DNA from: Amycolatopsis acidicola
Lineage (GTDB): Bacteria > Actinomycetota > Actinomycetes > Mycobacteriales > Pseudonocardiaceae
Length of the DNA stretch: 64,000 nt
Assembly: GCF_007713735.2 (NCBI RefSeq)
Contig: NZ_VMNW02000016.1
Coordinates: 1 to 64,000, forward strand
Direction: 5' to 3'
In this document: piece after piece, positions 7,986 through 23,369 of the stretch
How the letters are laid out: every line of letters starts with the position of its first letter
Position numbering within the stretch: position 1 is the stretch's first letter
Made by a program: the position numbers and the translations under genes
Notes under the pieces: model-generated
What the model saw: the letters and a program-made list of their open reading frames with translations, nothing else
Told to the model about the DNA's origin: nothing
The model's database searches: none

Positions 7986-9008
7986 TCACCCCACAGCGTG
8001 GAGAACCCGTTCTACATCACTCTCGGTGTTGTAGAGGTGGAAGCCGAGACGCACCTTCCCGGCACGGGCGCTGGCCTTGATCCCGGCCTCGGCGAGGCGG
8101 GCCGGATCGGCCTCGATCGAGACGATCGCGCTGCCGCGTTCGGCCAGGCCAAGCCCCCTGAGCAGGGAATCCGCCAGCCCGGCGCAGTGATCCCGGACGG
8201 CCTTGAGGTCGAGGGAGTTCAAGTACTCGAGCGCGACCGCGGCGCCCGCGTGCGCGAACCAGACCGGTGACAAGTCGTATCGGCGCGCGCCTTCGGCCTG
8301 CCGCAGCGGCATCCCGTACAGCGCGTCCCACTGCCCCTCGCTCGCGTACCAGCCGGCAGCGACCGCCCTGCCGGTGTGGACCGCGCGCGGATGCACGGCC
8401 AGCCACGCGGAGCCGCGCGGGGACAGCAGCCACTTGTAGCCGGCGCCGACGACCCAGTCCGCCCAGTCGAGCTGGAGCGGCAGCCAGCCCGCGGCCTGCG
8501 AGACGTCCAGCGCGACGGGGACGCCCGCCGCTTCGGACGCGGCCCGCAGGGCGTCGAGATCCGCGATCGCCCCGTCCGCGGACTGCACGACGGCGACGGC
8601 GACGAGGTCGTGCCCTTCGACGTGCTCCGGCAGCTCGGCGAGCGGGACTTCGTGGACGGTGGCGCCCGCGGCCGCGAAGGGGAACGTGACGCTGGTGAAT
8701 TCTCCTTGCGCCGCAAGGATTTTCGCCCCCGCCGGGAGCCCGGCGGCGATGTTGGCGAACAGCTGGGAAGCGCTGGCCCCGATGGCGATCCGGTCCCCAG
8801 GGACGCCGATCAGGTCCCCGAAACCCTGCCGGGAGAAGGTGACCGGCTCGTCGAAGTCGGGTGGGGAGTCGGCGCCGCGGCGCCAGCGGTCGACCAGCCG
8901 GACCACCGCGTCCGCCACGTGCCGGGGCGGGAGTCCGATGCTCGGGGTGTTGAGGTAGCCGTCCGGGACTTCGAACTCACCGTTGCCCCAGGTTCTGTGG
9001 TTCGCCAT
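7986..9008 (-). CDS. Class V aminotransferase family PLP enzyme
   Basis: 340-aa PLP fold-type I protein of the aminotransferase class V / cysteine desulfurase-like superfamily. It shows LNTPSIGLPPRHV near the N-terminus, the cofactor-region stretch VPVALDVSQAAGWLPLQL with the conserved Asp, and the Schiff-base lysine in VVGAGYKWLLSPRGSAWL. No desulfurase active-site Cys loop is seen, so sulfur mobilisation is unlikely; kynureninase- or isopenicillin-epimerase-like activity cannot be told apart here. ATG start. It lies 25 bp after the glycosyltransferase gene on the same strand. Confidence 0.85.
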   Translation of the reverse strand: MANHRTWGNGEFEVPDGYLNTPSIGLPPRHVADAVVRLVDRWRRGADSPPDFDEPVTFSRQGFGDLIGVPGDRIAIGASASQLFANIAAGLPAGAKILAAQGEFTSVTFPFAAAGATVHEVPLAELPEHVEGHDLVAVAVVQSADGAIADLDALRAASEAAGVPVALDVSQAAGWLPLQLDWADWVVGAGYKWLLSPRGSAWLAVHPRAVHTGRAVAAGWYASEGQWDALYGMPLRQAEGARRYDLSPVWFAHAGAAVALEYLNSLDLKAVRDHCAGLADSLLRGLGLAERGSAIVSIEADPARLAEAGIKASARAGKVRLGFHLYNTESDVERVLHAVG

Positions 9009-13859: not shown

Positions 13860-14351
13860 TCAAGGCGCCGTGCTCCCCGCCACCGGCATCGCGGGCAGGC
13901 CGAGTTTGTGGTGGTCCCACGATCGCGTGCGCCGCACATCCAGCCGCACCACCAAGCGTTTCGCCATCATGTACTCGACCGCCGGCTTGACTTCCTCGCT
14001 GTACGGGCCGTTGTAGCGCTCCCACACGCTGACCCCCACGCGCCAGATCTCGTCCGGGTCCTCGCTGATCACCGCGCGCCCCTCGAACGAAACGCCGCGC
14101 AGCGAGTCGTACGTCCGGCCGTCTTCGATGAGACAGCTCATCCGGTCGTCGCGCCGCAGGTTCTTCACCTTCTGCGACTTCGCCTTGGTTTCGATCCAGA
14201 TCTGCCCGTCCAGCACGGCATACCACATCGCCACGAGGTGCGGGAACCCGTCCGGCCCCAGCGTCGCGATGGTGGCGGTGCGGCTCCGCTCGACGAACTC
14301 CGCGATCTCGGCGTCGGTCATCCTGATCTCCGCCCGCTGGTTCGTGCCCAT
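13860..14351 (-). CDS. PPOX-class (pyridoxamine oxidase-like) F420 or flavin protein
   Basis: 163-aa split-barrel protein. Motifs: RTATIATLGPDGFPHLVAMW at residues 24-43, YDSLRGVSFEGRAVIS in the barrel, and a C-terminal RRTRSWDHHKLG that resembles the F420-dependent PPOX subgroup of actinobacteria. Likely an F420- or FMN-dependent reductase or oxidase; substrate unknown. The start at 14351 shares one base with the cysNC stop (TGATG), so it is translationally coupled to cysNC, which is unusual company for a PPOX gene. Confidence 0.85.
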   Translation of the reverse strand: MGTNQRAEIRMTDAEIAEFVERSRTATIATLGPDGFPHLVAMWYAVLDGQIWIETKAKSQKVKNLRRDDRMSCLIEDGRTYDSLRGVSFEGRAVISEDPDEIWRVGVSVWERYNGPYSEEVKPAVEYMMAKRLVVRLDVRRTRSWDHHKLGLPAMPVAGSTAP

Positions 14352-16168
14352 CAGCGATCCAAAAGGGCCAGGACGGCCGAGGCCATCGCGGTCGGGTCGC
14401 CGTCGCCGGGGCGCAGCACCAGCTCCGGGGCGGCGGGTTCTTCGTACGGGTCGTCGATCCCGGTGAACCCGCGGATCTCCCCCGCCCGCGCCTTGGCGTA
14501 CATGCCTTTCGGGTCACGGGATTCGCACACCTGCAGCGGTGTGTCCACAAATACCTCCACAAAGGACAGTCCAGCGCTCTCGTGCGCCGCGCGCGCACGC
14601 GCCCGGTCCACCCGATAAGGGCTGATCAGCGACACGATCGCGATCAGGCCGGCGTCGGCGAACAGTTTCGCCACTTCCCCGACCCGGCGCACGTTCTCGG
14701 CGCGGTCGGCCGCACTGAACCCGAGATCAGCGTTGAGCCCGTGGCGCAGGTTGTCGCCGTCCAACAGGTACGCGGGACGCCCCGCCGAAACCAGCAGCCG
14801 CTCCAGTTCAACGGCCACAGTGGACTTTCCGGACGCCGAAAGTCCCGTCAGCCAAACGGTTTTCCCCTGCGTCGACCGCTCGTCACGGGACACCGCGGCC
14901 GAATGCCACACCACCCGGGAGGCAGGCAGGCTCGGACCGGTGATCATGCCCGCCGCGACGGTGTTGTTCGTCGCGTTGTCGATGAGGATGAAGCTGCCCG
15001 TCTCCCGGTTGCGCCGGTACGGATCGAACAGCACCGGCTGCCGTGTCCTGATCCGCACACGGCCGATGTCGTTGAGGGACAACGAATCCGCCTGCTCGCG
15101 GTGCAGCGTGTTCACGTCGAGCCGGTAGTCCAGCGCCGCGACCTCGGCGGTGGTACTGCGCGTGGTGTGCTGCAGGGTGTACGTCCCGCCCACGCTCAGA
15201 CTGCTCGGGTCCGCGAACCAGCACACCATCGCGTCCAGATCCTGACCCGTGTGCGGCCGGTTTCCCGGGCGGCACAACAGATCCCCGCGCGCGATGTCGA
15301 GCTGGTCCGCCAGTTCCAGCGTCACCGCCTGCGGCGCGAACGCCCGCTCCAGCGGCCGCCCGCCAGGGCCCCACACCGAACGAATCCTCGTGCGGTGCCC
15401 CGACGGCAGCACGAGCAGCTCGTCACCGGGACTGAACACCCCGCCCGAGATCGTGCCGGCGTAGCCGCGGAAATCGGTGTGCCGGATGACGTACTGCACC
15501 GGCAGCCGCGCGTCGATCAGGTTGCGGTCGGAGGAAATGTGCAGCTCTTCGAGGTGGTGCAGCAGCGGACTGCCCTCGTACCACGGCATGGTCGCCGATC
15601 GGTGCACGATGTTGTCCCCGTGCAGCGCCGAAACCGGGATGAACGTCAGGTCGTGGATGTCGAGTTTCGCCGCGAACGCACGGAACTCGTCCCGGATCTC
15701 GGCGAACCGCTCCCGCGAGTACCCGACGAGGTCCATCTTGTTGACGCACAACACCAGGTGCGGGATGCCGAGCAGGGTGGCGAGGAACGCGTGCCGCCGG
15801 GACTGGTCGAGGATCCCGTGCCGGGCGTCGATCAGGATCAGCGCGCAGTCGGCGGTGGACGCGCCGGTCACCATGTTGCGCGTGTACTGGATGTGCCCCG
15901 GCGTGTCGGCGATGATGAACGTCCGCCGCGGCGTCGCGAAATAGCGGTGCGCCACGTCGATCGTGATGCCCTGTTCCCGTTCGGCGCGCAGCCCGTCGGT
16001 CAGCAGCGCCAGGTTCGGGTAGTCCTCTCCCCGGTCCCTGCTGCTGCGCTCGATGGCCGCCAGCTGGTCCTCGAACAGGGTTTTCGAGTCGAACAGCAGC
16101 CTGCCGATGAGCGTGGACTTGCCGTCATCGACGCTCCCCGCGGTCGCGATCCTCAGTAACGGGGCCAT
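14351..16168 (-). CDS. cysNC: Sulfate adenylyltransferase large subunit fused to APS kinase
   Basis: 605 aa. Residues 1-420 are the EF-Tu-like GTPase CysN (P-loop [30 protein letters not shown]), which drives APS formation by CysD. Residues about 430-605 are APS kinase CysC: P-loop [26 protein letters not shown], and [14 protein letters not shown]. The product is PAPS, the donor for sulfonation or for sulfate reduction. The ATG overlaps the cysD stop (ATGA). A PAPS-dependent sulfotransferase gene lies at the end of the divergent operon. Confidence 0.96.
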
Positions 16169-17073
16169 CAGAAGTACCCTTCCTTCTTGCGGTCTTCCAT
16201 CCCCGCCTCGGAAATCCGGTCGTCGGCGCGCGTGGCCCCGCGTTCGGTCACGCGGGTGGCCGCGGTTTCGGCGACAACGTCGGCCGGGGTCGCGGCGGTC
16301 GACTCGACGCATCCGGTGCACGTCGCGTCGCCGACGGTGCGGAAGCGCACCTGCGCCTCGTAGGGCTCTTCGCCGTCCAGCAGGGTGAGGTGCCGGGTGT
16401 GCGCGAGCAGCATCCCGTCGCGCTGCACGACCTGGCGCCGGTGCGCGAAATACAGCGGTGGCAACGGGATCTTCTCCGCCGCGATGTAGGACCAGATGTC
16501 CAGCTCGGTCCAGTTCGACAGCGGGAACACCCGGATGTGCTCGCCGCGCTTGTGCCTGCCGTTGTAGAGATGCCACAGCTCGGGGCGCTGGTTGCGCGGA
16601 TCCCATTGCCCGTACTCGTCGCGGAACGAGAACACCCGCTCCTTCGCGCGGGCCTTCTCCTCGTCACGCCGCGCGCCGCCGAACACGGCGTCGAAACCGT
16701 GTTCCCGGATGGTCCGCAAAAGAGTCACCGACTGCAACCGGTTCCGGCTCGCGCGCGGGCCCGTCTCGGCGACCACGCGCCCGGCGTCGATGTCGTCCTG
16801 CACGCTGCCGACGACGAGCCGGACGCCTAGCTCTCCGACGGTGCGATCGCGGAAGGCGAGCACCTCGTCGAAGTTCTCCCCGGTGTCCACATGCACCACC
16901 GGAAACGGGATCGGCGCAGGCCAGCAGGCCTTCGCGGCGAGGTGCAGCAGGACGACGGAATCCTTGCCGCCGGAGAACAACAGCCCGGGCCGCTGATGCG
17001 TCGCCAGCACCTCGCGCACGATGTGCACCGACTCCGCCTCGAGCGCATCAAGATGCGACAACTCGTAGGTCAC
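16168..17073 (-). CDS. cysD: Sulfate adenylyltransferase subunit CysD
   Basis: 301-aa ATP sulfurylase small subunit, PP-loop superfamily. It shows [20 protein letters not shown] (PP-loop SGGKDS) near residue 36, then [16 protein letters not shown] and the [16 protein letters not shown] and [16 protein letters not shown] signatures. GTG start with a poor ribosome binding site; a KstR-like palindrome sits only 12 bp upstream, so binding there would block this promoter. No assimilatory PAPS reductase gene is in the window, so this copy may serve sulfonation. Confidence 0.95.
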
Positions 17074-17084
17074 CTGGAAAAAAT

Positions 17085-17098
17085 TAGAACACGTTCTT
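17085..17098. promoter_or_regulatory. KstR-like operator, cysD/NTF2 divergent region
   Basis: TAGAACACGTTCTT contains a perfect 12-bp palindrome, AGAACACGTTCT. It fits the KstR consensus TnnAACnnGTTnnA at every position except the last base. It lies in the 59-bp gap between divergently transcribed cysD and the NTF2-like gene. KstR is the TetR repressor of steroid catabolism in actinobacteria; assignment here is by motif only. Confidence 0.6.
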
Positions 17099-17132
17099 GC
17101 CTTCGGTCAACCGCCGGAGGATGCTGTTCGGC

Positions 17133-17603
17133 ATGGACCTCGTCGCGCTCGAAGAGATCAAACGCGTGAAGTACCGCTATCTCCGCTGCGTCGACCTGAA
17201 GCAGTGGGACGACGTTGCCGACACGTTCACGGCCGACGCTGTCGCCGACTACGGCACGCCCGCCAAGGGCGACTCCTCGCCGCTCGAAGGCCGCGACGCG
17301 ATCCTCGCCTTCCTGCGCCAGAGCCTGGACAACGATCTGATCACCACGCATTTCGCGGGCCAGCCCGAGATCGAGATCGACGGGGACACGGCGACCGGGA
17401 CCTGGGCGTTCCAGGACAAGGTGATCTCGGTCAAGCACGGCGTGGTGATCGCCGGCGCGGCGTTCTACGAGGACGCCTACCGCCGTGACGAGGACGGCCG
17501 ATGGCGGATCGCGCGCACCGGCTACACCCGCACGTACGAGCTCACCGCGTCGCTGAAGGATCTGCCGAACCTCAAGTTCACCGCGCACCGGTGGGCCGAG
17601 TAG
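17133..17603 (+). CDS. NTF2/SnoaL-like protein
   Basis: 156-aa cone-fold protein of the SnoaL-like/NTF2 superfamily. It opens LEEIKRVKYRYLRCVDLKQW, the usual N-terminal helix pair, followed by TFTADAVADYG and a hydrophobic barrel (TATGTWAFQDKVISVKHG). Such proteins act as small cyclases, isomerases or hydratases, often in polyketide, steroid or lipid catabolism. It heads a four-gene plus-strand operon. The internal ATG (17133) is preferred over one 36 bp upstream, which would run into the operator. Confidence 0.82.
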   Translation: MDLVALEEIKRVKYRYLRCVDLKQWDDVADTFTADAVADYGTPAKGDSSPLEGRDAILAFLRQSLDNDLITTHFAGQPEIEIDGDTATGTWAFQDKVISVKHGVVIAGAAFYEDAYRRDEDGRWRIARTGYTRTYELTASLKDLPNLKFTAHRWAE

Positions 17604-17604
17604 C

Positions 17605-17618
17605 CAGAACGCGTTCCA
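17605..17618. promoter_or_regulatory. Second KstR-like box
   Basis: CAGAACGCGTTCCA, with the perfect palindrome GAACGCGTTC, lies in the 28-bp gap between the NTF2-like stop and the next start. It matches TnnAACnnGTTnnA except at the first base. Two such boxes within 530 bp in the same operon make chance less likely. Confidence 0.5.
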
Positions 17619-17631
17619 GTCAGGAGAGAGA

Positions 17632-18795
17632 GTGCTGACCCGTTCCTTCGCCGAAGCCGTCGAAGCCGCCGAAAAGATCATCGAGGAAGCGCCGTTCGTG
17701 CGCACCGAGCAGGATCTGATCGAGGGCTACGACTACCTCGCCGGCAGCATCCGGGCCTCGCTGCAGCTGGCCTGGGCCTACGAGCGCGACTTCCCCTTCT
17801 TCGCGAACTCGACCAACCAGGGCACGAAGATGGGCCTCGACAACCCGGACACGCTCTACTACCACTCGTACCTGCGCCCGGACGCCGAGTACGTCGTCAC
17901 CGGGAAACGGGGCAGCACAAGGGATCTGAACTTCCAGGTGCTCAACGGCGACTACTCCCCCGTGGACGTGCCCGACAGCCTCACCGCGTTCGACGACCGC
18001 GAGATCGACATCGAGCCCGACGGCAGCTTCGAGATCCGGTTCGGGCCGGGCAAACCGGGTCGCAACTACTTCCCCCTCGGCGCGGACGCGGCGATGCTCA
18101 TCGTCCGCGAGTGCTACAGCGACTGGGCGAACGAGCAGCGCGGCACGATCCGGATCCAGCGCGCGGACAAGATCGGCCAAGCCCCGCCGCCGCTGGCGAA
18201 AAGCACGCTGGAGAAGCGCTACAACGTGGCCGGGAAGATGCTGACCTCGCGGCTCAACACGTTTCTCGCCTTCCCGAAATGGTTCTACCTCAACCTGCCG
18301 GTGAACACGATGACCGAGCCGCGCCAGACGCCGGGCGGGCTGAGCACGCAGTTCTCCTCCGCCGGGCACTACGAACTGGCCGACGACGAGGCCATGATCG
18401 TGACGGTGCCCAAGTCCGACGCGCCGTACCAGGGCATCCAGCTGGGCAGCCTCTGGTACGTGTCGCTGGACTACATCAACCACCAGACGAGCCTGAGCGC
18501 CGACCAGGCCCGCGTGGACGAGGACGGGAAGATGCGGTTCGTGATCAGCGAACGCGACCCCGGCGTGGCGAACTGGCTGGAGCGCACGGGACACGACCGC
18601 GGTTACGTGCAGATCCGCTGGCAGCGCGTGTCCCACGACGTCCCCGAGGACGACGGCCCGGAGGTCGAAGTGGTTCCGGTGGACGAGATCCCCAAGCGGC
18701 TGGCGTATTACGACCAGGCCAGGGTGACGCCGGAGGAATGGGCAGACCGGATCGCGGCCCGTCAGGCCGCCGTGGCGACAAGGATGCTCGGCTGA
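17632..18795 (+). CDS. DUF1214-type protein
   Basis: 387 aa, no signal peptide or membrane span. The C-terminal part (about 250-350) resembles DUF1214: YQGIQLGSLWYVSLDYINHQ, then a region giving FVISERDPGVANWLE. The first 120 residues are helical and Tyr/Phe-rich (LAWAYERDFPFFANSTNQG). Proteins of this type are seen in actinobacterial steroid and hydrocarbon gene clusters, but no reaction is established. GTG start with AGGAGAG just upstream. Its stop overlaps the SDR start (TGATG). Confidence 0.78.
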   Translation: MLTRSFAEAVEAAEKIIEEAPFVRTEQDLIEGYDYLAGSIRASLQLAWAYERDFPFFANSTNQGTKMGLDNPDTLYYHSYLRPDAEYVVTGKRGSTRDLNFQVLNGDYSPVDVPDSLTAFDDREIDIEPDGSFEIRFGPGKPGRNYFPLGADAAMLIVRECYSDWANEQRGTIRIQRADKIGQAPPPLAKSTLEKRYNVAGKMLTSRLNTFLAFPKWFYLNLPVNTMTEPRQTPGGLSTQFSSAGHYELADDEAMIVTVPKSDAPYQGIQLGSLWYVSLDYINHQTSLSADQARVDEDGKMRFVISERDPGVANWLERTGHDRGYVQIRWQRVSHDVPEDDGPEVEVVPVDEIPKRLAYYDQARVTPEEWADRIAARQAAVATRMLG

Positions 18796-19571
18796 TGCTG
18801 TTGCGGGACAAGGTGGTCGTGGTCTCCGGGATCGGTCCCGGGCTCGGCCGGTCGATCGCCGTGCAGAGCGCGCGGGCCGGCGCGGACGTGGTGCTGGCTT
18901 CGCGGACGGAATCGCGGCTGACGGAGGTGGCGAAGGAGGTCACCGACCTCGGCCGCCGTGCCGTCGCGGTGCCGACGGACATCAACGACGAGTCCGACGC
19001 GGAACGGCTCGTGTCGTCCACTTTGGACGCCTTCGGCCGAGTGGACGCGTTGGTGAACAACGCTTTCGCGATGCCGCCGATGACGGACCTGGTGAAAGTG
19101 GACGTCGACCAGGTGCGGCAGGCGTACGACACCAACGTGTTCTCGGCGCTGAAACTGACGCGGCTGTTCGTGCCCGCGCTGGAGGAGTCGCGCGGGTCGG
19201 TCGTGATGATCAACTCCGCGGTGCTGCGGCATTCCCGGCGAACCTTCGGCGCGTACAAGATGACCAAGTCGAGTCTGCTGGCGCTGGCGCAGAGCCTGGC
19301 GACGGAGCTGGGCCCGCGCGGGGTCCGGGTCAACTCGGTGGCGCCCGGCTACATCTGGGCGGACAACCTCAAGTTCTACTTCGCTTACCTGGCACAGAAA
19401 CGCGGGATCACGGCGGAGGAGGTCTACGAGGAGACCGCGTCGACCATCGACCTGCGGAAGCTGCCAGAGCCCGACGAAATCGCCGACGCGGTGGTGTTCC
19501 TGGCGTCGGAGCTGGCGCGGGCGATCACCGGGCAGTGCCTGGACGTCAACGGCGGGGAGTACCACGCATGA
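18795..19571 (+). CDS. Short-chain dehydrogenase/reductase
   Basis: 258-aa classical SDR. Dinucleotide site VVSGIGPGLGRSIAVQ, NNAF at the NNAG position, catalytic Ser in VVMINSAVLRHS and YxxxK as YKMTK, then VRVNSVAPGYIW. The second Gly-rich motif GIGPGLG is a variant of GxxxGxG. Probably an NAD(P)-dependent alcohol or hydroxysteroid dehydrogenase; substrate inferred only from the operon and its KstR-like boxes. Coupled to the genes on both sides (TGATG before, ATGA after). Confidence 0.88.
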   Translation: MLLRDKVVVVSGIGPGLGRSIAVQSARAGADVVLASRTESRLTEVAKEVTDLGRRAVAVPTDINDESDAERLVSSTLDAFGRVDALVNNAFAMPPMTDLVKVDVDQVRQAYDTNVFSALKLTRLFVPALEESRGSVVMINSAVLRHSRRTFGAYKMTKSSLLALAQSLATELGPRGVRVNSVAPGYIWADNLKFYFAYLAQKRGITAEEVYEETASTIDLRKLPEPDEIADAVVFLASELARAITGQCLDVNGGEYHA

Positions 19572-20731
19572 TCGGCCGCGACGATGTGGGCACGATCGAC
19601 GACCTGCACGCTTCCGCGACGCGCTTCTGCGGCCTGGACGACTTCGGTGACGACGGGTACCGCGAAGGGCTCGAAGTGCTGCTGGAGTCCTACAAGCGTG
19701 ACGCCCAGCTGACGCCCTTCGGGAACAAAATCAACCGCGCGTTCCTTCGCGGCGCCCTCGTGGCGCGGCTGCTGAGCGAAGCGGCGTGGAAGCAGAACCC
19801 GTCGTATGCCGATGTGCCGATCGAGCGGCCGATCTTCGTGACGGGGCTCCCCCGCACCGGCACCACGGCGTTGCACCGGCTGCTCACCGAGGATCCCGGG
19901 CATCAGGGGCTCGAGGTGTGGCTGACGGAGGTGCCACAGCCGCGGCCGCCACGGTCGACGTGGGCGGACAACCCGGTGTTCCAGCGGATCCAGGCCGGGT
20001 ACGAACAGCATCACGTCGAGCGGCCGGAGTTCCTTGGGCTGCACCATTCTTCGGCCGAGATGGTCGAGGAATGCTGGCAGCTGCTGCGGCAGTCGGCGAA
20101 GTCGGTGTCCTACGAGTGCCTGGCCTACCTGCCGACGTACTCGGAGTGGCTGGCGCGGCAGGACTGGACGGATGCCTATGCGCGGCACCGGAAGAACCTG
20201 CAGCTGATCGGGCTGCCGGACAAGGACCGGCGGTGGGTGCTGAAGAACCCGAGCCACCTGTTCGCGCTGGACGCGCTGATGGCGGTGTACCCGGACGCGC
20301 TGGTGATCCAGACGCACCGCGCGCCGAGCACGATCATCGCGTCGGTGTGCAGCCTGAACGAGCAGGCGACGAAGGGCTGGTCGACGGCCTTCCACGGCGA
20401 GACGGTCGGGCGGACACAGCTCGAGCTGTGGGCTCGGGGTGCGGAAACGTTTGCTGCGTCACGGGCCCGATACAACCCGGCGCAATTCCTGGACGTCGAC
20501 TACGCCGACTTCGTCAGCGACCCTATCGGGACCGTGGAATCCATCTACCGGCACTTCTCGTTGCCACTCAGCGACGAAGCCCGAACCGCGATGACCGACC
20601 TGCACACCCAGAGCGTGACCGGCGCCGGACGCCCCTCACACCACTACACCCTCGCCGACTTCGGCCTCACCACTAAAGAAGTCGACGAACGCTTCGCCAA
20701 CTCCTCCCCCACCCGCTCCGGATCCCGGTGA
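19568..20731 (+). CDS. PAPS-dependent sulfotransferase family protein
   Basis: 387-aa Sulfotransfer_3-type enzyme. The 5'-phosphosulfate loop is at residues 89-101 (IFVTGLPRTGTTA); a WVLKNPSHLFALDAL stretch and IQTHRAPSTIIASV supply the 3'-phosphate contacts. Expected to transfer sulfonate from PAPS to a hydroxyl on a small molecule, sterol or glycan. The nearby cysD-cysNC genes would supply PAPS. The ATG overlaps the SDR stop (ATGA). The last 88 bp overlap the 3' end of the convergent asparaginase gene. Confidence 0.87.
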   Translation: MIGRDDVGTIDDLHASATRFCGLDDFGDDGYREGLEVLLESYKRDAQLTPFGNKINRAFLRGALVARLLSEAAWKQNPSYADVPIERPIFVTGLPRTGTTALHRLLTEDPGHQGLEVWLTEVPQPRPPRSTWADNPVFQRIQAGYEQHHVERPEFLGLHHSSAEMVEECWQLLRQSAKSVSYECLAYLPTYSEWLARQDWTDAYARHRKNLQLIGLPDKDRRWVLKNPSHLFALDALMAVYPDALVIQTHRAPSTIIASVCSLNEQATKGWSTAFHGETVGRTQLELWARGAETFAASRARYNPAQFLDVDYADFVSDPIGTVESIYRHFSLPLSDEARTAMTDLHTQSVTGAGRPSHHYTLADFGLTTKEVDERFANSSPTRSGSR

Positions 20732-21716: not shown

Positions 21717-23369
21717 TCAGCCCAGGAGTTTCGTGATCTCCGAGCTGTCGCGGATGTGCAGGACCACGCCGTCGGCGAGCTTGCGGGCGGCGGCGAGCAA
21801 TTCGCCCGCCACCTCGTAGCCGGTCCGCTCGCCGGCCTGGAGCGCTTCGAGGGTGTCCGGCGGCACCCGCACGTCGGGGACCTCATGGGCGAGGTACTCG
21901 GCCTCGGCGTAGCCGCTGAGGGGGTGCACGGACATCAGGATCGGGATGTCCTCTTCGGACAGTTCGGTGAGCATCCAGGCGAACGATTCGAGGTCGTAAA
22001 CCGGGGTGGTGACGAGAAACTGGGCCCCGGCGGCGATTTTCGCCTTGGTCCGGACGAGCTCGGCGTCCAGGTCAGCGGCGCCGGGGTTGAAGCGCGCGCC
22101 GATGTGGAAGGCCGTGCGCGTGACGAGCGTGTGCCCGGTGCGGTCACGGCCGGCGTTGAACGCGGCGAGCAGCTCGATGAGGCCGATCGAATCGACCTCC
22201 AGGATCCCGTCGGCGTCGGGGTAGTCGCCGAGCGGCGGCGGTGAACCGGTCTCGCAGACGACGGTGCGCAGGCCGAACGCGTGGGCGCCGTGGAGTTCGT
22301 CCTGCAGCGTCGTGATCGTCTTGTCCCAGGCCGTCATGGTGGCGATGTCTTTCCCGAAGACGAGGTCGACGCCTTGGTGGTCCCCGGGTCGCGAATACTG
22401 AGCCGCGACGACGAATTCCTTGTCCCGCAAGCGTTGCGCGAGCTTGCCCCGGGCGGGTTCGCTGCTGCGCTTGTGCTTGCTCACCTTGCGGCGCTGTTCG
22501 GGTGGACGCAGGTCCGCCAGCCGCGCGACCACCTCGCGGATGTGCCCCGGCGTCGTCCCGCAACACCCGCCGACGATCGATGCCCCGCTCTCGGCGTGCG
22601 CGCGGGCGTAGCGGGCGAAGTACTCCCCGTCGACGCCGTACTCGAACCGCCGCCCGATGCGCCGCGGGATGCCGGCGTTGGGCTGGGCGCTGACCGGGAG
22701 TGTGCCCCGGAGCCGCTTCACGATGCCGAGCATGTGCTGCGGCCCGACCGTGCAGTTGGCCCCGATCGCGGCGACTTCTGTTCGTGCCAATGCCTTTGCC
22801 ACTTCCTCCGGCGTCTCACCGTCGAGCGTGCGACCCTCGGCCGTGAACGTCGCCTGCGCGATCACCGGCACGTCGGTCTCGACCGCGATCGCGACCGCCT
22901 CCAGGAGCTCGCCGAGCCCCCCGAACGTCTCGAGGACCAGCAGGTCGACCCCGCCGTCGATGAGGGCCGTGACCTGCTCACGGATTACGTCGATGCGCTC
23001 GTCGGGGCTGTACGCGGCACCCTGGCCGGCCTTGGCCGCCGGTGAAACCGAGCCGCCCACGAACACCGTCCGCCGTGCCCCGCGCCGCGCCTGCCGCGCC
23101 AGCCGCACGCCCGCCATGTTCACGTCGCGCACCGTCGCGGACCCGCCCAACTCCGCCAGCCGCAACCGGTTCGCCCCGAAGGTGTTCGTGAGGAGAAGAT
23201 CGGCGCCGGCCGCCACGTAACTCTCGTGGACCGTGCTGACCAGCTCGGAGTTGCTCAAGTTGAGCTCCGGTAACGCCCTGTCCAGCGAGTTCCCCGCCGC
23301 GTGCAGCATCGTGCCCATCGCGCCGTCGCACACCAGAACCCGTTCGCTGAGGTGCTCGGTGAAGTCCAC
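21717..23369 (-). CDS. Homocysteine S-methyltransferase / methylenetetrahydrofolate reductase fusion
   Basis: 550 aa, two enzymes in one chain as in Bacillus YitJ. Residues 1-285 are the homocysteine methyltransferase barrel (LVCDGAMGTMLHAAGNSL; zinc Cys in IGANCTVGP and in GGCCGTTPGHIREV). Residues about 310-550 are a MetF-like domain (ITTLQDELHGAHAFGLRTVV, HIGARFNPGAADLDAEL, FLVTTPVYDLESF). The pair would make 5-methyl-THF and use it, or another methyl donor, to form methionine. GTG start with GGAGG upstream. No riboswitch is visible ahead of it. Confidence 0.9.
   Translation of the reverse strand: MDFTEHLSERVLVCDGAMGTMLHAAGNSLDRALPELNLSNSELVSTVHESYVAAGADLLLTNTFGANRLRLAELGGSATVRDVNMAGVRLARQARRGARRTVFVGGSVSPAAKAGQGAAYSPDERIDVIREQVTALIDGGVDLLVLETFGGLGELLEAVAIAVETDVPVIAQATFTAEGRTLDGETPEEVAKALARTEVAAIGANCTVGPQHMLGIVKRLRGTLPVSAQPNAGIPRRIGRRFEYGVDGEYFARYARAHAESGASIVGGCCGTTPGHIREVVARLADLRPPEQRRKVSKHKRSSEPARGKLAQRLRDKEFVVAAQYSRPGDHQGVDLVFGKDIATMTAWDKTITTLQDELHGAHAFGLRTVVCETGSPPPLGDYPDADGILEVDSIGLIELLAAFNAGRDRTGHTLVTRTAFHIGARFNPGAADLDAELVRTKAKIAAGAQFLVTTPVYDLESFAWMLTELSEEDIPILMSVHPLSGYAEAEYLAHEVPDVRVPPDTLEALQAGERTGYEVAGELLAAARKLADGVVLHIRDSSEITKLLG

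What the first reader, a model, noticed from the sequence alone, without database searches (positions are those of the whole stretch)
17085..17618. Two KstR-like boxes link PAPS synthesis to a sulfotransferase operon
TAGAACACGTTCTT and CAGAACGCGTTCCA each fit TnnAACnnGTTnnA but for one terminal base. They control a divergent pair of units: cysD-cysNC (PAPS supply) and NTF2-DUF1214-SDR-sulfotransferase (PAPS use). This suggests a steroid- or sterol-responsive sulfonation pathway rather than assimilatory sulfate metabolism.
Basis: partly seen in the sequence, partly recalled or inferred. Interest (0 to 1): 0.65.

Follow-up and report, generated by a model that had tools for sequence, protein, structure and literature searches.

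The report
Sterol-controlled PAPS supply and sulfotransferase cassette
Soil bacteria related to Mycobacterium appear to switch on a sulfate-attaching enzyme, together with its own cofactor supply, through the same repressor that controls sterol degradation, which points to an undescribed sulfonated product of sterol metabolism.

Summary
Scored with a matrix from 47 published KstR sites, the two boxes are the best two in the window (23.0 and 20.5 bits; third 10.6; chance about 0.05 per Mb). The genome encodes a KstR orthologue with its own upstream box, and a sterol-degradation cluster with KstR boxes. Boxes hold their positions in relatives: 49 of 52 divergent cysD genes and 93 of 119 DUF1214 genes carry one; four controls gave 0. 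All 105 genomes with the DUF1214 gene are among the 127 of 397 with KstR.

The cysD-cysNC pair is a second, kinase-bearing copy; this genome's assimilatory-type set lies elsewhere without kinase or box. Box 2 is an operator inside the operon. DUF1214-SDR-sulfotransferase is orthologous to a mycobacterial operon reported as KstR-regulated in 2007. New here: PAPS synthesis under KstR-type control, and a first gene whose nearest solved relative is bile-acid dehydratase BaiE. KstR binding, sterol induction and a steroid substrate are inferred, not shown.

The parts
14351..16168 (-). cysNC: GTPase subunit of ATP sulfurylase fused to APS kinase (makes PAPS)
   Evidence: Pfam GTP_EFTU and APS_kinase E 7e-70; start codon inferred
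16168..17073 (-). cysD: ATP sulfurylase small subunit, GTG start, possibly leaderless
   Evidence: NCBIfam CysD TIGR02039 E 2.5e-132
17081..17110 (-). proposed cysD promoter: -35 TTGACC (17105-17110), 18-bp spacer, -10 TAATTT (17081-17086), with box 1 in the spacer
   Evidence: A TTGnnn-(16-19)-TAnnnT promoter spans the box in 42 of 52 loci with divergent cysD, 0.8 expected with shuffled flanks
17085..17098 (.). KstR-like box 1, TAGAACACGTTCTT, 23.0 bits
   Evidence: box at cysD in 49 of 52 loci
17133..17603 (+). SnoaL/NTF2-fold protein related to bile-acid 7-alpha-dehydratase BaiE (ATG 17121 also possible and used in the searches)
   Evidence: Pfam SnoaL_4 E 5.6e-34; PDB 4l8o BaiE E 2.2e-21; Y20, D25, H77 (numbered from 17121) invariant in 43 loci
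17605..17618 (.). KstR-like box 2, CAGAACGCGTTCCA, 20.5 bits, in the 28-bp gap before DUF1214
   Evidence: box within 250 bp upstream of DUF1214 in 93 of 119 loci
17632..18795 (+). DUF1214 protein, function unknown
   Evidence: Pfam DUF1214 at its cut-off (25.0 bits); PDB 6ans, uncharacterized, E 3.5e-33
18795..19571 (+). SDR oxidoreductase
   Evidence: Pfam adh_short_C2; PDB 3ucx E 8.5e-88, then 7-alpha-hydroxysteroid dehydrogenase 1ahh E 2e-34
19568..20731 (+). PAPS-dependent sulfotransferase
   Evidence: Pfam Sulfotransfer_3 E 3e-58; PDB 2zq5 E 4e-166

Best explanation
This is a sterol-inducible sulfonation module of the KstR regulon. When no sterol is being degraded, KstR sits on box 1, inside the spacer of the cysD promoter and at the divergent SnoaL-like gene, and on box 2 before DUF1214, and blocks transcription. 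When sterol side-chain acids or their CoA thioesters accumulate they release KstR. CysD and CysNC then make PAPS, and the SnoaL-like enzyme, the SDR and the sulfotransferase modify and sulfonate a hydroxysteroid that arises during sterol breakdown; DUF1214 has an unknown role. Shown here by computation: genes, boxes, promoter-like sequence, a KstR orthologue, conservation, co-occurrence, and a separate assimilatory-type set. Known from the literature for the mycobacterial operon taken as orthologous: KstR binding and derepression. Inferred: KstR binding and induction at these sites, the steroid nature of the substrate, the position sulfonated and the fate of the product.
For: Boxes score within published KstR sites and far above background. 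KstR orthologue with a 23.9-bit box beside an acyl-CoA dehydrogenase gene, and boxes at hsaA, kstD, echA19 and the steroid 3-ketoacyl-CoA thiolase of the same genome. Box upstream of DUF1214 in 93 of 119 loci and of divergent cysD in 49 of 52 (both in 43 of 52); controls upstream of SDR 0 of 119, upstream of the sulfotransferase 0 of 119, reversed sequence 0 of 119, cysD 3' ends 0 of 52. All 105 DUF1214 genomes lie within the 127 KstR genomes of 397. In L065 the cassette has no cysDNC nearby and directly follows a CYP125 gene (steroid C26-monooxygenase, E 8e-184) beside a steroid thiolase gene and KstR boxes. In 50 of 119 loci the triad lies near a kshA-like gene (family confirmed for the query and for L153). 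The L153 box has the first 18 of the 20 bases of the published MSMEG_5932/5933 site, whose gene was derepressed 6-fold in a kstR mutant; the Rv3531c/Rv3532 site bound KstR by EMSA. The window cysNC has APS kinase, this genome's other cysN does not, and 21 regions around other cysD copies have no box above 9.5 bits. The SnoaL-like protein is closest to BaiE among solved structures.
Against: No binding or expression data exist for this organism. In S. hirsuta, also of the Pseudonocardiaceae, no increase of kstR, choE or mce4 expression was seen after 24 h with cholesterol (passage), and in N. simplex only about a third of operons with predicted KstR or KstR2 motifs were induced (passage). In the 2007 work 5 of 31 predicted M. 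smegmatis motifs were not supported by the array and 1 of 13 M. tuberculosis sites tested did not bind, so a good motif is not proof. Word searches of the main texts of sterol transcriptome papers (S. hirsuta, N. simplex, M. smegmatis) did not find these genes; supplements were not read. 26 of 119 loci lack a box of 13 bits or more directly before DUF1214; five (L198-L201, L256) have none anywhere in the fetched stretch, and L202 only one of 15.0 bits. 22 of 127 KstR genomes lack this gene at E 1e-90, so it is not essential to having KstR. No sulfotransferase substrate is known. Two of the 47 training sites come from the orthologous operon, and loci are related, so counts are not independent events.
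Confidence: 0.8

Rival explanations
1. KstR controls the cassette, but the sulfonated molecule is not a steroid: it is a lipid, glycolipid or other metabolite made when the cell lives on sterol.
For: The substrate of the sulfotransferase is unknown; the nearest solved sulfotransferase, 2zq5, is deposited without a function name. The DUF1214 relative in the PDB is uncharacterized.
Against: BaiE-like and SDR partners, position behind CYP125 in L065 and near kshA-like genes in 50 of 119 loci, and strict nesting within KstR genomes.
Confidence: 0.14
2. The boxes are read by another regulator, for instance the IclR-type protein encoded next to DUF1214 in many relatives.
For: An IclR-type gene was found in 53 of 119 loci (Pfam HTH_IclR for the L154 and L066 proteins).
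Against: No IclR hit in the window cassette while both boxes remain; the boxes match a KstR matrix, and the corresponding operon in mycobacteria is reported as bound and repressed by KstR.
Confidence: 0.04
3. The cassette serves sulfur economy: sulfate activation, sulfite detoxification or sulfated metabolites regulated by sulfur source.
For: In Rhodococcus qingshengii IGTS8 a second CysD2 and a neighbouring sulfotransferase (Stf0) were detected only in dibenzothiophene cultures; the kinase-fused CysN2C was detected but not quantified (PMC8557817, passages).
Against: KstR boxes at the cassette and none in 21 regions of other cysD copies; co-occurrence with KstR. Whether the IGTS8 cluster is the same cassette was not tested.
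Confidence: 0.04
4. The boxes are chance matches without function.
For: Loose consensus searches are not enriched in the window or in the genome.
Against: Matrix scores, position in a promoter-like spacer and conservation in relatives with zero hits in four controls.
Confidence: 0.01

Closest known systems
Mycobacterial KstR-regulated operon led by Rv3531c / MSMEG_5932
   Same: In L153 the same three genes in the same order (51-61% identity) with a KstR box upstream that shares 18 of 20 bases with the MSMEG_5932 site; binding and derepression published (PMC1995591). That L153 and the named genes are orthologues is inferred from order and box
   Different: No cysD-cysNC and no SnoaL-like gene in the 19.9-kb L153 locus; the string 'sulf' does not occur in the 2007 main text
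Bacteroides cholesterol-sulfate cluster BT_0411-BT_0416
   Same: Putative PAPS synthesis genes next to a sulfotransferase shown to sulfonate cholesterol (PMC9417993, passages)
   Different: Different phylum; no KstR, DUF1214, SDR or SnoaL-like partner in the passages read; lactose induced Bt_0412 and left Bt_0416 unaltered. Homology of the sulfotransferases was not tested
BaiE bile-acid 7-alpha-dehydratase
   Same: Nearest solved relative of the SnoaL-like protein (E 2.2e-21) with aligned Tyr, Asp and His; their catalytic role is recalled
   Different: Distant; different gene context; activity untested
cysN2C-cysD2-stf0 of Rhodococcus qingshengii IGTS8
   Same: Second, kinase-bearing PAPS pair beside a sulfotransferase (passages)
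   Different: Reported with respect to sulfur source; the word steroid does not occur in the main text

Membership tests
KstR regulon | KstR orthologue in the genome | tested here: met
KstR regulon | TnnAACnnGTTnnA-type operator at the promoter | tested here: met
   23.0 and 20.5 bits, within 18.4-32.7 of published sites; each one base off the strict consensus
KstR regulon | Operator conserved at orthologous genes | tested here: met
   93 of 119 DUF1214 and 49 of 52 divergent cysD
KstR regulon | KstR binding in vitro and derepression in a kstR mutant | not testable with these tools
   Published only for the mycobacterial operon taken as orthologous
PAPS-forming sulfate activation complex | CysD plus CysN fused to APS kinase | tested here: met
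   Pfam and NCBIfam matches
Assimilatory sulfate reduction locus | APS reductase and sulfite reductase in the same locus | tested here: not met
   None among the genes called between 14351 and 20731; such genes lie on C123 with another cysD-cysN
PAPS-dependent sulfotransferase (Sulfotransfer_3) | Pfam family match above cut-off | tested here: met
   197.9 bits against 27
Steroid sulfotransferase | Activity on a hydroxysteroid | not testable with these tools
   No assay
BaiE-type dehydratase | Tyr-Asp-His set at aligned positions | tested here: met
   Y20, D25, H77 invariant in 43 loci and aligned to Tyr, Asp, His of BaiE; which BaiE residues are catalytic is recalled
BaiE-type dehydratase | 7-alpha-dehydration of 3-oxo-delta4 bile acids | not testable with these tools
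   No assay

The most novel reading that the evidence does not exclude
The cassette is an unrecognised branch of sterol catabolism for ring-hydroxylated sterols, for example 7-hydroxy or 7-keto sterols from auto-oxidation: the SDR interconverts ketone and alcohol, the BaiE-like enzyme dehydrates, and the sulfotransferase sulfonates the hydroxyl either for export or as a leaving group, with PAPS made on demand under KstR. The mycobacterial operon would be a reduced form of the same pathway.
Probability: 0.25. Interest if true: 0.8.

Novelty: new variant of a known kind. Interest (0 to 1): 0.6.

Why it matters
The mycobacterial operon that corresponds to DUF1214-SDR-sulfotransferase was placed in the KstR regulon in 2007, and a 2019 gene list still names its members as hypothetical or possible. 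Relatives that bring their own PAPS supply under the same kind of operator turn this into a direct prediction: sterol-grown cells make a sulfonated product. It would also put a sulfotransferase step into KstR-controlled sterol degradation, and it offers non-pathogenic strains in which to look for the product.

Tried and rejected
The loose consensus searches do not separate the two boxes from chance and were replaced by a matrix. The matches at 8001 and 16733 (10.6 and 10.1 bits) fall below all published sites and were not pursued. The protein search of genome contigs gave 5 loci; 3 of these (L018-L020) showed only the SnoaL relative and were not scanned for boxes. L054 was dropped from the locus table because its contig ends before DUF1214. 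The cysD promoter was recognised by a loose pattern, and no promoter for the SnoaL direction or for box 2 could be assigned. The kinase test says nothing about the relatives' assimilatory cysN, because the stretches fetched end at cysD; the statement about a missing kinase rests on this genome alone. Literature: no paper held KstR, steroid and sulfate adenylyltransferase together (0); KstR with sulfotransferase gave 3 papers, none relevant by title or abstract start; listings and the passages read show no report of a KstR-controlled PAPS supply. Supplements were not read. Structure prediction was not run because, as I read its rule, DUF1214 could have had only a three-sequence alignment.

Full report
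OBSERVATION. The two boxes are at the stated coordinates, TAGAACACGTTCTT at 17085-17098 and CAGAACGCGTTCCA at 17605-17618. A one-mismatch search with TnnAACnnGTTnnA finds 6 sites in the window where 5.0 are expected. Genome-wide, TAGAACnnGTTCTA with up to two mismatches gives 154 hits against 266 for the reversed control, while TAGAACnnGTTCnA without mismatch gives 11 hits on both strands (6 places) against 2. A loose consensus is therefore no evidence. I built an 18-base matrix from all 47 sites in Table 3 of the KstR paper PMC1995591 (section read). The published sites score 18.4-32.7 bits. The two boxes score 23.0 and 20.5 and are the top two of the 64 kb; the third place scores 10.6. In 60 Mb of simulated sequence with the window's composition, 20.5 bits or more occurs 0.05 times per Mb and 23 bits never.

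ANATOMY. On the minus strand lie cysD (16168-17073) and cysNC (14351-16168), the latter with an APS kinase domain. On the plus strand lie a SnoaL-like gene (17133-17603), DUF1214 (17632-18795), an SDR (18795-19571) and a sulfotransferase (19568-20731). Box 1 is in the short divergent region. In the cysD direction it lies in the spacer of a promoter that I read as TTGACC-18-TAATTT, two bases into the -10, with seven bases between the -10 and the GTG start (sequence). A promoter of this form spans the box in 42 of 52 loci with divergent cysD, against 0.8 expected when the flanks are shuffled and the box is kept. Box 2 is in the 28-bp gap between the SnoaL-like gene and DUF1214, so it is a second operator inside the plus-strand unit, not part of the divergent region.

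THE REGULATOR. The C124 protein's best solved matches are the KstR chains (E 8.6e-72). It lies beside an oppositely oriented acyl-CoA dehydrogenase gene with a 23.9-bit box between them, the layout described for kstR/fadE34. On contig C125 boxes of 21-27 bits stand at hsaA, kstD, echA19 and the steroid 3-ketoacyl-CoA thiolase gene. A KstR regulon is therefore very likely present in this genome.

CONSERVATION. In a first set, all 19 loci with both cysD and the SnoaL-like gene had a box of at least 13.5 bits between them, and 16 of the 18 that could be read had one of at least 13.4 before DUF1214; L052 and L063 did not. I then searched 397 genomes of the order: 105 encode the DUF1214 protein (E 1e-90 or better) and 127 encode KstR (E 1e-40 or better). 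All 105 are among the 127; the chance of this under random placement is about 1e-74, ignoring relatedness. I examined 119 loci: from 114 G-handle genomes, with three of them (G087, G094, G129) giving two each, and L016 and L017; every one of the 105 genomes is in the table. All 119 carry DUF1214-SDR-sulfotransferase in that order. A box of 13 bits or more stands within 250 bp upstream of DUF1214 in 93 (77 at 18.4 or more). Divergent cysD is present in 52, with a box in 49 (34 at 18.4 or more); the three without are L193, L196 and L198. Both boxes are present in 43 of the 52. Controls: upstream of SDR 0 of 119, upstream of the sulfotransferase 0 of 119, reversed sequence 0 of 119, 3' end of cysD 0 of 52. 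The loci are related, so these are not independent events, and 2 of the 47 training sites come from this operon in mycobacteria.

VARIANTS. Three arrangements help interpretation. In L153, whose genome has KstR 94% identical to the query, the triad has no cysDNC or SnoaL-like gene nearby; the box (31.3 bits) has the first 18 of the 20 bases of the published MSMEG_5932/5933 site, and a kshA gene is nearby. In L154 and others an IclR-type gene stands between cysD and DUF1214, with one box before cysD and one before DUF1214. In L065 the cassette has no cysDNC nearby and directly follows a gene whose best solved matches are CYP125 (steroid C26-monooxygenase, E 8e-184), next to a steroid thiolase gene and several KstR boxes; it has no box of its own before DUF1214. 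Of the 26 loci without a box directly before DUF1214, most have one at cysD, at the start of a longer array or near the kshA-like gene. Against universality, four loci (L199-L202) have cysD-cysNC-DUF1214-SDR-sulfotransferase in one direction without a box, apart from a 15.0-bit site before cysD in L202; L198 and L256 have none in the fetched stretch.

DEDICATED PAPS SUPPLY. The genome has a second cysD (63%) on C123 in a row with a nitrite/sulfite-reductase-family gene, a gene with a PAPS_reduct domain (cysH-like) and a cysN without APS kinase domain. That region and 20 regions at other cysD copies of relatives have no box above 9.5 bits. So the window pair is not the assimilatory-type set. 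Those 20 stretches end at cysD and do not show the relatives' cysN; one (L273) contains an APS kinase-like stretch.

LIKELY FUNCTION. The sulfotransferase matches Pfam Sulfotransfer_3 and, at E 4e-166, PDB 2zq5; I recall 2zq5 as mycobacterial STF1, not shown by a call. The SnoaL-like protein's nearest solved relatives are BaiE chains (E 2.2e-21), then weak matches to steroid delta-isomerase. Tyr20, Asp25 and His77, invariant in the 43 loci that have the gene (44 rows, the window twice), align with Tyr, Asp and His of BaiE that I recall as catalytic. The SDR is closest to 3ucx and then to 7-alpha-hydroxysteroid dehydrogenases, which is weak evidence in so broad a family. From this and the CYP125 and kshA contexts I infer that a hydroxysteroid is the substrate. 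[quoted passage not shown] the induction step follows from that. The same paper saw no increase of kstR, choE or mce4 expression in Saccharopolyspora hirsuta after 24 h with cholesterol, and in Nocardioides simplex about a third of operons with predicted KstR or KstR2 motifs were induced (PMC7807495, passage), so induction here must be tested.

WHAT IS KNOWN. PMC1995591 reports 6-fold derepression of MSMEG_5932 in the kstR mutant and EMSA binding at Rv3531c/Rv3532; 'sulf' does not occur in its main text. It also reports that 5 of 31 predicted motifs were not supported and 1 of 13 sites did not bind. PMC6429209 lists Rv3529c, Rv3530c and Rv3531c among cholesterol-related genes as conserved hypothetical protein, possible oxidoreductase and hypothetical protein (passages). 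Bacteroides has putative PAPS genes beside a cholesterol sulfotransferase (PMC9417993, passages), so a PAPS supply beside a sterol sulfotransferase is known elsewhere. I found no report of PAPS synthesis under KstR (supplements not read).

VERDICT. The finding is real, and its interpretation is supported at the level of sequence. It extends a known regulon operon by a PAPS supply and a BaiE-like enzyme. The product is unknown and is the open question.

Noticed in passing
window 20644-20731: The 3' ends of the sulfotransferase gene (+) and an asparaginase gene (-; Pfam) overlap by 88 bp; a convergent overlap also shows in L055 and L056.
   Followed up: partly
L156:9293-9919: A second KstR-like protein (54% to Rv3574) on C138 beside another TetR-type gene, with no KstR box of 5 bits or more just upstream.
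   Followed up: partly
L158:13921-14434: In genome G056 a SnoaL relative (48% to the window protein), outside the cassette, has its own 21.5-bit KstR-like box just upstream.
   Followed up: no
L071, L072, L073, L075, L076, L078: Strong KstR-like boxes in the window's genome next to genes such as F420-dependent LLM oxidoreductases, an NDMA-dependent alcohol dehydrogenase and a FadD8-like ligase.
   Followed up: no
window 21717-23369: One ORF matches homocysteine S-methyltransferase and, further along, methylenetetrahydrofolate reductase.
   Followed up: no
G004:C21:43491-44390 and G018:C16:117296-118195: Two relatives carry a third cysD, 83% identical to the cassette copy, at another place.
   Followed up: no
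L199-L202: Co-directional cysD-cysNC-DUF1214-SDR-sulfotransferase, almost without KstR boxes, suggesting another control in that group.
   Followed up: partly
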